From Leucobacter sp. UCMA 4100 (GTDB lineage: Bacteria > Actinomycetota > Actinomycetes > Actinomycetales > Microbacteriaceae), in assembly GCF_027853335.1 (NCBI RefSeq), contig NZ_JAFEUS010000002.1:806001-870000 (forward strand): DNA of 64,000 nucleotides. Reading direction: 5' to 3'. Shown piece by piece: positions 12,633-16,400 of the stretch; positions within the stretch are counted from its first letter, which is position 1; every line of letters begins with the position of its first letter. The position numbers were made by a program, and so were the translations under genes. The notes below the pieces were generated by a model. The model saw only the letters and a list, made by a program, of their open reading frames with translations, was not told where the DNA came from and did not search any database.

Positions 12633-12825
12633 ACCCTCCCCACTCTGTTGCAGACCTGAGAGATTCCGGCGCTTGCGCGCCATTGCACCGTCGGTGGAGG
12701 CAGAGCTTGCGCCCTACCTCGCTTTCCAGAGTTGCCACGCCCCGCGGTACGGGTGCCTGAGAGATTCTCGGGGAGGAGTTGCTCCTACGGCGCCACACTC
12801 AATCGTGTGGGCTCTCCCGCGAGGG
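12633..12825 (-). promoter_or_regulatory. Tandem glycine riboswitch
   Basis: On the minus strand this leader shows two glycine aptamers in series. Aptamer 1 (~12825-12727) starts GCGGGAGAGCC, then GCGCCGTAGGAGCAA, then GAATCTCTCAGGCA. Aptamer 2 (~12722-12633) has CCACCGACGGTGCAA and GGAATCTCTCAGGTC. The conserved GGAGCAA/GGTGCAA and TCTCAGG cores and the short linker fit the tandem gcvT-type riboswitch. gcvP begins about 40 nt downstream. By analogy with other gcv operons it should switch expression on when glycine is high. A promoter should lie in 12826-12900. Confidence 0.93.
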
Positions 12826-12878
12826 CGTATTGGCCGATATTCACATATGGCATTCATAGTACCACCTCGCGACGACAA

Positions 12879-13718
12879 TCAATGCGCAGCCGTATCAACG
12901 AGCACAGCCGCGGCAACGTCGGGGCGCTCCGGCGAGCCCGGCACGAAGACGACCGGGCCGCCCTGCGCGGGTGCCGCGGGCGTAAGCGTCGCAAGAATCT
13001 CGGCGCGAGAGAGCCCGCACTCGGCAAGAGCCGCGATCTCACGGGTGTTGAACCCCGCGACCGTCGGCCCGTTGCCCATATCAGTGCCGTAGCGCACCAC
13101 CCCACCCGCGCGGTGAAAGCGTCGAAGGTTATCGACCGCGATGCCAAACTCGTCGTCGGGGGTTCCCCAGCCATGAATATCGAGCGTCGAGATCCACACC
13201 ACATGTTCGGCCTGCGCCGCGATCTCGGCGTCATCGAGACGCTCGGTAAACGGCGTGTGGGCGAGCATCGTCGCACCGCACTCCCGTGCCCGCTGCGCCT
13301 CACCGGGCCCCTCGGCGTGCGCGACCACCGGAAGCCCCGCCGCGGCCGCAACGACGGCGCGCACGACGTCGCTCGAAGCCGCCGGCCCAGCGACGCTATT
13401 CATCGCGACCTTGAACACGCTCGCCCCAGCCTCACGCATACTGAGCGCGGCCTCGCGTGCGGCCGCTGCCCCATCGACCTCGATCACGCTGCCGGGGCCG
13501 GCCCACGAACGGTCAGAGGGGTAGCCGCCGGGCGCGGTAATGAAAGCGCCGGCATACGACACCGTGACTCCCCTCAGTCCGTCAGCAATGCCGCGCAGCC
13601 GCTCAACGTTCGAGCCGAGATCGAGCACGCGCGTGACGGGCGAGGGCTCGGGCCGCATGAGCTCGAGGTGCACGTGCCAATCGCGAAACCCGCCGGTGTT
13701 AAAACCCTCAGCGCCCAC
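12879..13718 (-). CDS. Amidohydrolase-family protein coupled to tryptophan dioxygenase
   Basis: A 279-aa protein with metal-hydrolase features: H15 and H17 in DWHVHLEL (first-strand HxH), a lysine in ASVFKVAMN that could bridge metals, a histidine in VVAHAEG, another in LDIHGWG, and a late Asp in YGTDMGNG. The order fits a compact amidohydrolase TIM barrel, though it is short for the superfamily. The GTG start at 13718 lies 3 nt after the kynA stop, so the two are coupled. TDO produces N-formylkynurenine, which needs hydrolysis of a formamide; no classic kynurenine formamidase is nearby. I infer, without proof, that this protein may do that step or a later one. Confidence 0.75.
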   Translation of the reverse strand: MGAEGFNTGGFRDWHVHLELMRPEPSPVTRVLDLGSNVERLRGIADGLRGVTVSYAGAFITAPGGYPSDRSWAGPGSVIEVDGAAAAREAALSMREAGASVFKVAMNSVAGPAASSDVVRAVVAAAAGLPVVAHAEGPGEAQRARECGATMLAHTPFTERLDDAEIAAQAEHVVWISTLDIHGWGTPDDEFGIAVDNLRRFHRAGGVVRYGTDMGNGPTVAGFNTREIAALAECGLSRAEILATLTPAAPAQGGPVVFVPGSPERPDVAAAVLVDTAAH

Positions 13719-13721
13719 GAG

Positions 13722-14579
13722 CTACCCTTTACCGACCTCGGTGCGAACGGCAAACAGCTCGGGAAAGAAGGTGAGGCTCAGTGCGCGCTGCAAGAAATCG
13801 ACGCCCGATGATCCGCCCGTTCCCGTCTTCATGCCGATCGTGCGGGTCACAACGCGCAGGTGCCTGAAGCGCCAAAACTGGAAGTTGTCTTCAATGTCGA
13901 CGAGCTCTTCGCACGCCTCATACAGATCCCAGTGCTCTTCGTGGTTCTCATAGATCGTGCGAAATACGTCAACGAGCCCGTCGTTGTGCTCATACGCCTC
14001 GGTCACGTCACGCTCGAGAATCTCGCTCGGCACGGGCAAGCCGCGACGGCTGAGGTACCGCAAGAACTCGTCGTAGAGCGTTGGCGCGGCAAGCTCGGCG
14101 GCGAGCAAGGCATGGTTCTCTGGCTCGGCCTCGAACACCCTGAGCATCTTCGCGTTCTTGTTGCCGAGCGCAAACTCAATCGCGCGGTACTGCACCGACT
14201 GAAAGCCCGACGAGTTGCCGAGCGAGTCGCGAAACTCTGCGTACTCAGAAGGCGTGAGCGTCGCGAGCACCGACCACTGCTGAATGAGCACCTCTTGAAT
14301 GTGCTTCACCCTCGCGAGCGGCTTGAGCGCCGAGCGCAGGTTGTCGCTCTTCAAGAATTCCCGCGAGGCCCGCAGTTCGTGCAGAATGAGCTTGAGCCAC
14401 AGCTCAGAGGTCTGGTGCTGAATGATGAACAGGAGTTCGTCGTGGTGCTCAGGGCTACTCACGGGGTGCTGCGCTGAAAGGAGCGCATCGAGCCCAAGGT
14501 ACGAGCCGTATGTCATCTTGTCACGCAGATCGGTGACGATGCCTTCTTCAAGCTTGCGGGTATTCTTTTCGACACTCAT
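13722..14579 (-). CDS. kynA: Tryptophan 2,3-dioxygenase
   Basis: A 285-aa haem enzyme that oxidises L-tryptophan to N-formylkynurenine. The catalytic-site histidine is H55 in [18 protein letters not shown]. The haem ligand is H240 in [14 protein letters not shown], followed by the diagnostic KTGTGGSSG. Length is normal. The ATG at 14579 has GAAAGGACC upstream. It is the first gene of a two-gene unit with the amidohydrolase. Neither kynureninase nor other kynurenine genes are seen in the window. Confidence 0.97.
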
Positions 14580-14882: not shown

Positions 14883-16400
14883 GTGCTCGATACCATTCAG
14901 GGATTTCTTGACAGCGCAAGCTCTGTCATCTGGGGACCCTTTGTTCTGATTCCCCTCCTCTTTCTCACAGGCCTCTACCTCACAATTCGACTCGGAGGCC
15001 TCCAGTTTATTCGCTTGGGCGCTGCCCTAAACCTCGGCATCATCAAGCGCCGAGATGCCGGCGCGAAGGGTGACATTAGCCAGTTCCAGGCGCTCACAAC
15101 CGCTCTCGCCGCAACCGTAGGCGTGGGCAACATCGTGGGCGTGGCCGGCGCAATCGGCATTGGCGGCCCAGGCGCCCTCTTCTGGATGTGGGTGACCGGC
15201 CTGCTCGGCATGGCCTCGAAGTACGCAGAGGCGTTTCTCGGCGTGCGTTACCGCTCGGCCGATGAACATGGCGAGCGCAACGGCGGCCCACAGTATTACC
15301 TCCAGAAGGGCATCAAGGGCCCCGTCGGCAAGATTCTTGCTTGGGCCTTCACCATCTTCACGGTGCTCGCCTGCTTCGGTATCGGCAACATGACCCAGGC
15401 TAATGCGATCGCTGAAAACGCAGAGCGCTCATTCGGCGTTGACCCCTTCTGGGTTGGCATCGTGCTCGCCGTGCTCACCGGGCTCGTACTCGTTGGCGGC
15501 ATTAAGTCAATCGGCAAGGTGACCGCCGGCTTCGTTCCCATCATGATCCTGCTCTACGTGGTCGCCGCCCTCTACATCCTCTTCGTCAATGTCGGCGATG
15601 TTCCTGCCGCTTTCGGCCAGATCTTCTCAGAAGCCTTCACCGGAACGGCCGCAACTGGCGGCTTCCTCGGGTCAGTCTTCATCATTGCTATTCAGTACGG
15701 CTTTGCCCGCGGTATCTTCTCGAACGAGTCGGGCATGGGGTCGGCTGCAATCGCCGCGGCCTCGGCACAGACGAGCCACCCTGTACGCCAGGGCCTCGTC
15801 TCGATGACGCAGACCTTCATCGACACCATCATCGTGGTCACCATGACCGGCCTTGTGATCATCACGACCGGCACCTGGAGCATGGTCGATCCTGACACCG
15901 GAGAGCAAATCTCGAAGGCGCTCATGACCGGCGAGGCATTCTCGCACGGTCTCCCGGGCGAGTGGGGCCACTGGATCGTCACCATTGGCGTCATCATGTT
16001 CGCTTACTCGACGATTCTCGGTTGGTCGTACTACGGCGAACGAAACGCAGTGCGCATCTTCGGCCGTAAAGCTACGATTCCCTTCCGTATCATCTTCTCT
16101 GCCGTCGTGTTCATTGGCGCGACCACGCAGCTCGAGGTTGTCTGGTCATTCTCAGACGTCATGAACGGCCTCATGGCCATTCCGAACTTGATCGGTCTAC
16201 TCATTCTCTCGGGTCTCATCGCCCGTGAGACGAAGGCGTACATCAAGTTCGACCCGAAGCTCACGGCCACCGCAGATCAGGTCGCCGAGCACTTCAAGAA
16301 CGATCCTGCGTACCTCGAGTGGAACACGCAAGAGATCGCCCTTGAATCGCGCAAGGAAACGTACCTCAATACGAAACGAAACGCGGTAATCCCGAGCTAA
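14883..16400 (+). CDS. Alanine/glycine:cation symporter (AGCS family)
   Basis: A 505-aa membrane protein with about ten or eleven helices that imports alanine or glycine with Na+ or H+. Family signatures include GDISQFQALTTALAATVGVG near residue 65-85 and the GIFSNESGMGSAAIAAA motif near 275-290. The GTG at 14883 is the start. Behind it a long hairpin serves as terminator. Nearby genes handle glycine (gcv) and amino acid oxidation (DadA-like), which agrees with uptake of small neutral amino acids, but substrate preference cannot be read directly. Confidence 0.94.
   Translation: MLDTIQGFLDSASSVIWGPFVLIPLLFLTGLYLTIRLGGLQFIRLGAALNLGIIKRRDAGAKGDISQFQALTTALAATVGVGNIVGVAGAIGIGGPGALFWMWVTGLLGMASKYAEAFLGVRYRSADEHGERNGGPQYYLQKGIKGPVGKILAWAFTIFTVLACFGIGNMTQANAIAENAERSFGVDPFWVGIVLAVLTGLVLVGGIKSIGKVTAGFVPIMILLYVVAALYILFVNVGDVPAAFGQIFSEAFTGTAATGGFLGSVFIIAIQYGFARGIFSNESGMGSAAIAAASAQTSHPVRQGLVSMTQTFIDTIIVVTMTGLVIITTGTWSMVDPDTGEQISKALMTGEAFSHGLPGEWGHWIVTIGVIMFAYSTILGWSYYGERNAVRIFGRKATIPFRIIFSAVVFIGATTQLEVVWSFSDVMNGLMAIPNLIGLLILSGLIARETKAYIKFDPKLTATADQVAEHFKNDPAYLEWNTQEIALESRKETYLNTKRNAVIPS

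What the first reader, a model, noticed from the sequence alone, without database searches (positions are those of the whole stretch)
12879..14579. Amidohydrolase as possible missing kynurenine formamidase
A compact amidohydrolase (HxH at 15/17, Asp in YGTDMGNG) starts 3 nt after tryptophan 2,3-dioxygenase. TDO's product needs a formamide hydrolase, and no classical KynB is visible. Coupled translation makes a shared pathway likely, but the family is not the usual one.
Basis: inference. Interest (0 to 1): 0.55.

Follow-up and report, generated by a model that had tools for sequence, protein, structure and literature searches.

The report
Third type of kynurenine formamidase (predicted)
Many actinobacteria that break down tryptophan by the kynurenine route appear to do the second step with an unrecognised metal-dependent amidohydrolase instead of either known enzyme, which would fill a gap in the pathway and can be tested with one simple assay.

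Summary
In detail: a 279-aa amidohydrolase (AMH, 12879-13718, minus) starts 3 nt after the stop of tryptophan 2,3-dioxygenase (TDO). Of 80 relatives found by AMH sequence alone, 75 have TDO within 500 nt upstream, 66 kynureninase downstream, 63 both. Of 199 genomes of the family, 48 hold AMH and TDO, 8 AMH only, 20 TDO only, 123 neither. KynB passes its curated cut-off in 0 of 394 class genomes; this genome's one cyclase scores 82.6 bits against 223 (a real KynB 319). In AMH-less genomes 20 of 60 TDO loci carry an alpha/beta hydrolase related to a solved kynurenine formamidase; no examined locus has both. AMH keeps a full HxH-K-H-H-D metal site and folds like amide hydrolases such as ochratoxinase. 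Best reading, without assay: AMH hydrolyses N-formylkynurenine, a third non-homologous kynurenine formamidase; ten literature searches listed no such report. Against it: eight AMH genomes lack TDO. A TDO-less branch has lost the otherwise conserved Arg70, which hints at a changed substrate.

The parts
12879..13718 (-). AMH, predicted N-formylkynurenine hydrolase (amidohydrolase superfamily, 279 aa)
13722..14579 (-). kynA, tryptophan 2,3-dioxygenase (285 aa)
   Evidence: TIGR03036 1.1e-119, 398.7 bits, cut-off 390.7
13719..13721 (-). 3-nt gap between TDO stop and AMH GTG start; AAAGGG at the TDO end as possible ribosome-binding site
   Evidence: read; inference
13668..13676 (-). codons of H15-V16-H17 (HxH metal ligands)
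   Evidence: invariant in the 35 rows; in 75 of 75 of the 80 relatives with a letter there
13410..13412 (-). codon of K103, position of the carboxylated lysine of binuclear amidohydrolases
   Evidence: aligned with the Lys of solved amide hydrolases; 79 of 79 with a letter; carboxylation inferred
13317..13319 (-). codon of H134 (metal ligand)
   Evidence: 79 of 79 with a letter
13257..13259 (-). codon of H154 (metal ligand)
   Evidence: 80 of 80
13080..13082 (-). codon of D213 in YGTDMGNG (metal ligand and likely proton shuttle)
   Evidence: 79 of 79 with a letter; shuttle role inferred
13509..13511 (-). codon of R70 in GGYPxxRxW, candidate substrate carboxylate contact
   Evidence: Arg in all TDO-adjacent copies with a letter there except the decaying G336 copy; Ala or Ser in six copies without TDO beside them; role inferred

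Best explanation
AMH is the second enzyme of the kynurenine route. TDO oxidises L-tryptophan to N-formyl-L-kynurenine. AMH, a short (beta/alpha)8 metal hydrolase with a binuclear site made by H15, H17, carboxylated K103, H134, H154 and D213, activates a water that attacks the formyl carbonyl; D213 shuttles the proton, and kynurenine and formate are released. Kynureninase (next gene in most relatives, elsewhere in this genome) then makes anthranilate and alanine. AMH thus replaces KynB (cyclase fold) and the animal-type alpha/beta-hydrolase formamidase, to neither of which it is related. Shown here: gene order, co-occurrence, absence of the alpha/beta hydrolase from AMH loci, intact metal site, predicted fold. 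Inferred: substrate, metals, lysine carboxylation, catalytic steps.
For: TDO within 500 nt upstream in 75 of 80, kynU within 500 nt downstream in 66 of 80, both in 63 of 80 relatives found without using the neighbours (with a 400-nt limit and profile bounds alone 70, 63 and 56). Co-occurrence in 199 family genomes: 48 both / 8 AMH only / 20 TDO only / 123 neither. In the class sample all 30 AMH genomes are among the 236 TDO genomes of 394 (10 of the 30 are distant homologues); the 16 AMH and 16 TDO genomes of the 21 from this family are the same ones. kynU at E up to 1e-40 in 75 of 76 family genomes with TDO or AMH, 10 of them over the curated cut-off. KynB over cut-off in 0 of 394 class genomes and 0 of the 76, with a positive control at 319 bits. 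In 60 TDO loci of AMH-less genomes 20 carry an alpha/beta hydrolase (ABH), 7 of which supplied my profile and 13 of which come from the 40 loci fetched afterwards; its profile matches a solved kynurenine formamidase (4e11) at 6.5e-27. None of 99 AMH loci has ABH above 150 bits. Inside one genus (g211) two genomes have TDO-AMH-kynU; a third has TDO-kynU without AMH but with an ABH elsewhere. Full HxH-K-H-H-D site. AF2 model pLDDT 90.7, pTM 0.89; nearest solved folds are Zn carboxypeptidases (3be7 Z 26.1, rmsd 3.0, 267 aligned), ochratoxin amidohydrolases (8ihq Z 24.6, rmsd 3.2, 266 aligned) and phenylurea hydrolase B (Z 22.0, rmsd 3.2, 272 aligned).
Against: No biochemical data. Eight family genomes hold AMH without a TDO match; IDO was also not found, but that profile rang in no control, so it shows little; in three of the eight (g172) AMH is not beside kynU either. 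20 TDO genomes lack AMH, and for most of these I do not know the formamidase; 40 of 60 AMH-less TDO loci show neither AMH nor ABH. ABH above 150 bits is in 0 of 48 TDO+AMH+ and 6 of 20 TDO+AMH- genomes, but five of those six supplied rows of the profile, so the Fisher value of 3.5e-4 flatters the contrast; 15 of the 22 ABH genomes have neither TDO nor core AMH, so ABH is not specific to the route. The ABH profile's two best solved matches are called carboxylesterase (9x6a, 1.1e-101) and lipase (9n8r, 9.5e-28), ahead of kynurenine formamidase, and its members hit only lipase-type NCBIfam models below cut-off. This genome holds one cyclase about as similar to solved KynBs as to other cyclases, which could act on N-formylkynurenine. 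The AMH searches scored only 5 or 11 candidates a genome. Genome counts are not independent of phylogeny.
Confidence: 0.8

Rival explanations
1. AMH works after kynureninase: KynU cleaves N-formylkynurenine directly and AMH deformylates the N-formylanthranilate that results.
For: Gene order TDO-AMH-kynU does not fix the order of reactions; AMH sits with kynU in the TDO-less genera g142 and g173; both substrates are N-aryl formamides. That KynU can use N-formylkynurenine is recalled, not from a call.
Against: The alternative gene in AMH-less clusters is related to a solved kynurenine formamidase, whose substrate is N-formylkynurenine; the simplest reading is the same step. AMH is nearly always the gene directly after TDO (75 of 80).
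Confidence: 0.07
2. Another hydrolase of the genome (the PF04199 cyclase at C2:1113699 or an unlinked alpha/beta hydrolase) makes kynurenine, and AMH serves a side task in the cluster, such as hydrolysis of another amide or dipeptide of tryptophan or kynurenine.
For: One cyclase is present; 28 of 76 TDO or AMH family genomes have a sub-cut-off cyclase; the nearest fold relatives include dipeptidases and carboxypeptidases.
Against: The cyclase model finds nothing at E 1e-12 in 48 of those 76 genomes, and here the cyclase lies away from TDO and kynU; its KynB model score is 82.6 against 223. No ABH match at 1e-20 in this genome (12 of 38 candidates scored). AMH tracks TDO far better than either.
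Confidence: 0.11
3. Chance neighbourhood: an unrelated amidohydrolase happens to follow TDO.
For: None beyond the broad spread of amidohydrolases.
Against: 75 of 80 relatives, by record title from several families of Actinomycetota, share the neighbour; AMH and TDO distances over 76 loci correlate at r 0.92, 0 of 2000 permutations as high (shared ancestry contributes).
Confidence: 0.02

Closest known systems
KynB, bacterial kynurenine formamidase (TIGR03035, PF04199; structures 4cog, 4cob, 4co9)
   Same: Predicted reaction; place in the tryptophan-to-anthranilate route; two-metal hydrolase chemistry (AMH side inferred)
   Different: Different fold and motif (KynB has HxxxHxDxxxH, passage in PMC5341072); AMH has no hit to TIGR03035 at E up to 1
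Animal/yeast kynurenine formamidase (alpha/beta hydrolase; 4e11, recalled as Drosophila) and the actinobacterial ABH found here
   Same: Predicted reaction; same TDO/kynU cluster
   Different: Serine hydrolase with HGG and GHSAGG motifs; unrelated fold
Zn-dependent carboxypeptidases / Xaa-Pro dipeptidases / ochratoxin amidohydrolases of the amidohydrolase superfamily (3mtw, 3be7, 2qs8, 8ihq, 4c5y)
   Same: Fold (VIA Z 23.5 to 26.1, rmsd 3.0 to 3.4, 18 to 26% identity, rows 1-17) and the metal-ligand positions
   Different: AMH is some 100 to 156 residues shorter and lacks the N-terminal part of those chains; it has its own GGYPxxRxW and YGTDMGNG motifs; NF051886 matches at 23.3 bits against a cut-off of 500
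Phenylurea hydrolase B, molinate hydrolase (4whb, 4ub9)
   Same: Same superfamily fold (Z 22.0 and 21.5, rmsd 3.2 and 3.3); cut N-aryl or carbamoyl bonds (recalled)
   Different: Larger; xenobiotic substrates

Membership tests
Amidohydrolase superfamily (Amidohydro_1) | Profile match over the curated cut-off | tested here: met
   28.4 bits, cut-off 25
Amidohydrolase superfamily, binuclear Lys-carboxylate type | HxH, Lys, His, His, Asp ligands in order on the barrel (definition recalled) | tested here: met
   H15, H17, K103, H134, H154, D213 invariant; aligned with the same residues of solved relatives
Amidohydrolase superfamily, binuclear Lys-carboxylate type | Two metals bound and lysine carboxylated | not testable with these tools
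   Needs a crystal structure or metal analysis
Amidohydrolase superfamily | (beta/alpha)8 barrel fold | tested here: met
   AF2 pLDDT 90.7, pTM 0.89; Z up to 26.1 to superfamily members
KynB (TIGR03035 / PF04199) | Equivalog match over 223 bits | tested here: not met
   AMH has no TIGR03035 hit at E up to 1; control KynB 319 bits
Animal-type kynurenine formamidase (alpha/beta hydrolase) | Alpha/beta hydrolase fold with GHSAGG nucleophile elbow | tested here: not met
   AMH has no alpha/beta hydrolase Pfam hit at E up to 1 and its model matches amidohydrolases instead
Xaa-Pro dipeptidase equivalog NF051886 | Score over 500 bits | tested here: not met
   23.3 bits; 32 of 35 family members hit it weakly, best 8.7e-12
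Kynurenine formamidase as a function (EC 3.5.1.9) | Genomic link with TDO and kynureninase | tested here: met
   63 of 80 relatives with both neighbours; in this genome TDO is adjacent and kynU is elsewhere
Kynurenine formamidase as a function (EC 3.5.1.9) | Hydrolysis of N-formyl-L-kynurenine | not testable with these tools
   Needs an enzyme assay

The most novel reading that the evidence does not exclude
AMH founds a third, structurally unrelated class of kynurenine formamidase, spread as a TDO-AMH-kynU unit across Actinomycetota, and a side branch has been re-tasked: in two genera of the window's family without TDO (g142, g173; AMH-kynU pairs) and in one further copy without TDO beside it (L061), the otherwise conserved Arg70 is Ala or Ser and Glu136 is Gln, so these copies may hydrolyse another N-acyl kynurenine-like compound that is taken up or made by an unknown oxygenase.
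Probability: 0.45. Interest if true: 0.65.

Novelty: new variant of a known kind. Interest (0 to 1): 0.56.

Why it matters
If true, a pathway gap in many actinobacterial genomes closes, a protein family without a named NCBIfam model gets a function, and one reaction of central amino-acid catabolism is seen to be solved three times by unrelated folds (cyclase, serine hydrolase, metal amidohydrolase), with two of them trading places around the same genes. It would also correct metabolic models that call kynurenine production absent where no kynB is annotated.

Tried and rejected
KynB elsewhere: PF04199 and TIGR03035 searches found one sub-cut-off cyclase in this genome. None of the 14 named control genomes passes the TIGR03035 cut-off, so one search is the only positive control. 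That cyclase is about equally close to solved KynBs (E 7e-13 to 1.3e-11) and to two other cyclase-type chains (1.2e-13 and 5.6e-13), so it stays a weak rival.

AMH without TDO: eight genomes were searched for IDO and for Pfam TDO; both gave 0 of 8. The IDO profile rang in none of 14 control genomes, so its absence is not shown.

Distant AMH homologues (94 to 178 bits; f18, f21, f36 and G191; 10 of the 30 class genomes): seven were fetched and none has TDO or kynU nearby. The seven keep the metal ligands but lack E136 and W175, and five lack H182. I treat them as another subfamily and do not count them as operon evidence. Dropped before the family count: G400 and G412, whose only AMH matches are 79 and 76 bits.

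Other fillers: a patatin-like gene lies between TDO and kynU in one small-genome relative (L106); not followed further. ABH in G402 appears as two pieces of 114 and 94 bits in different frames and is not among the six counted.

A phylogeny-corrected test of co-occurrence was not run; only Fisher counts, within-genus comparisons and a distance correlation. One Fisher line (97 AMH loci against 60) used a rounded locus number and is not used here. My first gene caller gave wrong frames in high-GC loci and was replaced. Positive-control hunts in plasmid records gave alpha/beta hydrolases beside kynA in Azospirillum and Deinococcus, kynU-kynA without an adjacent hydrolase in Thalassospira, Bradyrhizobium and Caballeronia, an Arthrobacter alpha/beta hydrolase beside kynA that does not match the ABH profile, and no KynB.

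Literature: ten searches were answered, in a library without most subscription journals.

Full report
The observation. The minus-strand ORF 12879-13718 encodes 279 residues from a GTG start and follows the stop codon of tryptophan 2,3-dioxygenase (TDO, 13722-14579) after 3 nt. It passes Pfam's Amidohydro_1 cut-off narrowly (28.4 against 25 bits). The only NCBIfam match is Xaa-Pro dipeptidase at 23.3 bits against a cut-off of 500; TDO passes the TIGR03036 cut-off. I call the amidohydrolase AMH.

Conservation of the neighbourhood. A scan of the GTDB species genomes with peptides of AMH alone, without using the neighbours, gave 80 relatives, the most that one call returns; by record title all are Actinomycetota: Leucobacter, Microbacterium, Salinibacterium, Aurantimicrobium, Promicromonospora, Myceligenerans, Nocardioides, Thermomonospora, Kineosporia, Conexibacter, Solirubrobacterales and others. 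Most are Microbacterium, so they are not 80 independent cases. TDO lies on the same strand within 500 nt upstream in 75 of 80, kynureninase within 500 nt downstream in 66, both in 63; with a 400-nt limit on profile bounds alone the figures are 70, 63 and 56. The five without TDO are L006, L061, L073, L080 and L082; L082 begins inside the AMH. One of the 75, L083, has its AMH in two pieces 1.6 kb apart. Of the 14 without adjacent kynU, L008 and L061 end at the contig end, six (L058, L065-L068, L077) have kynU 3.7 to 4.3 kb further down and L072 0.6 kb further down; L004, L015, L057, L082 and L083 show none in the stretch held. AMH and TDO distances over 76 loci correlate at r 0.92, 0 of 2000 permutations as high, though shared ancestry contributes.

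Co-occurrence in whole genomes. In a spread sample of 394 class genomes TDO is found in 236 (E up to 1e-10) and AMH in 30 (E up to 1e-25), all 30 within the 236. Of these 30, 20 belong to the core family (19 above 290 bits plus the G336 remnant) and 10 are distant homologues; the seven of these that I fetched have no TDO or kynU nearby. In the core, 19 of 20 lie next to TDO by their coordinates; in the twentieth, G185, AMH lies next to kynU and TDO on another contig. Among the 21 genomes of the window's own family in this sample, AMH and TDO occur in the same 16. In 199 genomes of that family: 48 both, 8 AMH only, 20 TDO only, 123 neither; G400 and G412, with AMH matches of only 79 and 76 bits, are counted as without AMH. 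In 47 of the 48 the coordinates are adjacent (the exception is G555, on two contigs). kynU is found at E up to 1e-40 in 75 of the 76 genomes that hold TDO or AMH, 10 of them over the curated cut-off; in the exception, G402, kynU lies beside TDO in two frames. The AMH searches scored only 5 or up to 11 candidates a genome, so misses are possible.

No canonical KynB. TIGR03035 passes its cut-off of 223 bits in 0 of 394 class genomes and 0 of the 76; weaker matches occur in 70 and 28 of them. A real KynB scores 319 by the same model. This genome's only match (C2:1113540-1114154) scores 82.6. kynU is at C2:1924785, over its cut-off, beside a divergent gene that I read as an AsnC-type regulator and a gene that I read as an aromatic amino-acid permease (sequences; no family search was run on them). 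Known KynR regulators are Lrp/AsnC-type (reference title in PMC4349456).

What lies there when AMH is missing. I fetched 60 TDO loci from AMH-less genomes (20, 40), chosen by family spread and listed coordinates, not at random. 20 carry an alpha/beta hydrolase (ABH) above 150 bits within the fetched stretch; none carries AMH. Seven of the 20 supplied the profile; the other 13 are among the 40 loci fetched afterwards. ABH hits the Pfam BD-FAE and Abhydrolase families and has invariant HGG and GHSAGG motifs. Its profile matches a solved kynurenine formamidase (4e11, recalled as Drosophila) at 6.5e-27, behind a carboxylesterase (9x6a, 1.1e-101) and a lipase (9n8r, 9.5e-28); in NCBIfam all 16 members hit a hormone-sensitive lipase model, and the one printed score is far below its cut-off (64.5 against 320). 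So ABH as a formamidase is itself a prediction, though a natural one beside TDO and kynU: an actinomycin cluster has an arylformamidase next to TDO and kynureninase (passages of PMC6521150). In 99 AMH loci (93 core, 6 distant) no ABH above 150 bits occurs; eight have 45-55-bit matches, which I take for other hydrolases.

Over whole family genomes ABH above 150 bits is in 0 of 48 TDO+AMH+ and 6 of 20 TDO+AMH- genomes (Fisher 3.5e-4). That value is neither corrected for kinship nor fair, since five of the six genomes supplied rows of the profile. One AMH+TDO- genome (G536) also has ABH, and so do 15 genomes without TDO or core AMH, so ABH is not confined to this route. The clearest case is genus g211: G467 and G575 have TDO-AMH-kynU, whereas G526 has TDO and kynU 34 nt apart as called, no AMH match, and an ABH of 172.7 bits elsewhere; G467 has only an 88-bit match and G575 none. 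Outside the phylum, kynU-kynA-alpha/beta hydrolase clusters are annotated on Azospirillum and Deinococcus plasmids and match the ABH profile weakly (72 and 61 bits). In G336 AMH has lost its C-terminal half and His15 while TDO and kynU are intact: a decaying copy. 40 of the 60 AMH-less loci have neither AMH nor ABH; what they use is open.

Structure and mechanism. Over 35 members H15, H17, K103, H134, H154, H182, Y210, D213 and N216 are invariant. The ligand positions align with those of solved amide hydrolases. The AlphaFold model (pLDDT 90.7, pTM 0.89) is nearest to Zn carboxypeptidases (3be7, Z 26.1, rmsd 3.0, 267 aligned; 3mtw, Z 25.6, rmsd 3.1, 271 aligned), ochratoxin amidohydrolases (8ihq, Z 24.6, rmsd 3.2, 266 aligned) and phenylurea hydrolase B (Z 22.0, rmsd 3.2, 272 aligned); rows whose Z differs by less than 1 are tied. 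Several of these cut amides or ureas (substrates by title or recalled), which suits a formamide. I infer a carboxylated Lys103, two metals, a bridging hydroxide that attacks the formyl group, and D213 as proton shuttle. None of this is shown.

A possible specificity residue. In the core family Arg70 (GGYPxxRxW) is kept in every TDO-linked copy with a letter there except the decaying G336 copy. The other exceptions are the five AMH-kynU copies of TDO-less genera g142 and g173 (Ala or Ser, always with Gln136) and L061 (Ser, Gln136, no TDO in the 5 kb held upstream). Gln136 without loss of Arg70 occurs in ten TDO-linked copies. Other copies without TDO beside them (L006, L073, L080, L084-L086) keep Arg70. 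Arg70 is therefore a candidate contact for the amino-acid part of N-formylkynurenine, and the branch without it may have another substrate.

Literature. PMC4243253 (passages, one from the abstract) says that kynurenine formamidase differs between eukaryotes and prokaryotes and that KynB matches no known amidase or amidohydrolase. PMC5341072 (passages) gives the KynB motif. PMC13151070 (passages) names AFMID for this step. The searches listed no paper that, by title, start of abstract or the passages I read, assigns this step to an enzyme like AMH; the library lacks most subscription journals and I read only passages of five papers, so this is weak evidence of novelty. Kurnasov 2003 was seen only as a reference.

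Verdict. I rate formamidase function at 0.80 and the case as a new variant of a known kind.

Noticed in passing
window 12635-12829 (-): Two glycine riboswitch aptamers in tandem (Rfam RF00504, 63.0 and 38.7 bits) between AMH and the gene I read as gcvP; they suggest that TDO-AMH and the glycine cleavage genes are separate units.
   Followed up: partly
window 14883-16400 (+): 505-aa transporter gene divergent from TDO, which I read as a sodium:alanine symporter (no family search); it is kept in the same place in Leucobacter chinensis (L004; L176 seems to be the same contig). Alanine is a kynureninase product, so a functional link is possible.
   Followed up: no
L174 4059-7444 (own genome C2): kynU sits with a divergent gene that reads as an AsnC-type regulator and one that reads as a permease, far from TDO-AMH; this kynU is only about 36-42% identical to the operon kynU of other genera, as if the original operon kynU was lost and replaced.
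   Followed up: partly
L087-L091: TDO-less genera carry AMH-kynU pairs with Arg70 changed to Ala/Ser and Glu136 to Gln; source of their substrate unknown.
   Followed up: partly
L084-L086: Genus g172 keeps an intact AMH with all motifs but no TDO match in the genome and kynU elsewhere.
   Followed up: no
L106 7269-8120 (-): In small-genome relatives kynU and a divergent TDO pair without AMH or ABH nearby; in L106 a patatin-like gene lies between them. Their formamidase is unknown.
   Followed up: no
L181 (G106): TDO and kynU both appear in pieces around an AMH in one genome: a decaying operon or assembly errors.
   Followed up: no
L083 3207-5429: AMH of Promicromonospora kroppenstedtii matches in two pieces about 1.6 kb apart; what lies between was not examined.
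   Followed up: no
L001 1333-1956 (-), own genome C2:1113540-1114154: Cyclase-family protein (82.6 bits on the KynB model) with an HSGTHLDAPSH motif, near a gene I read as a permease; function unknown.
   Followed up: partly
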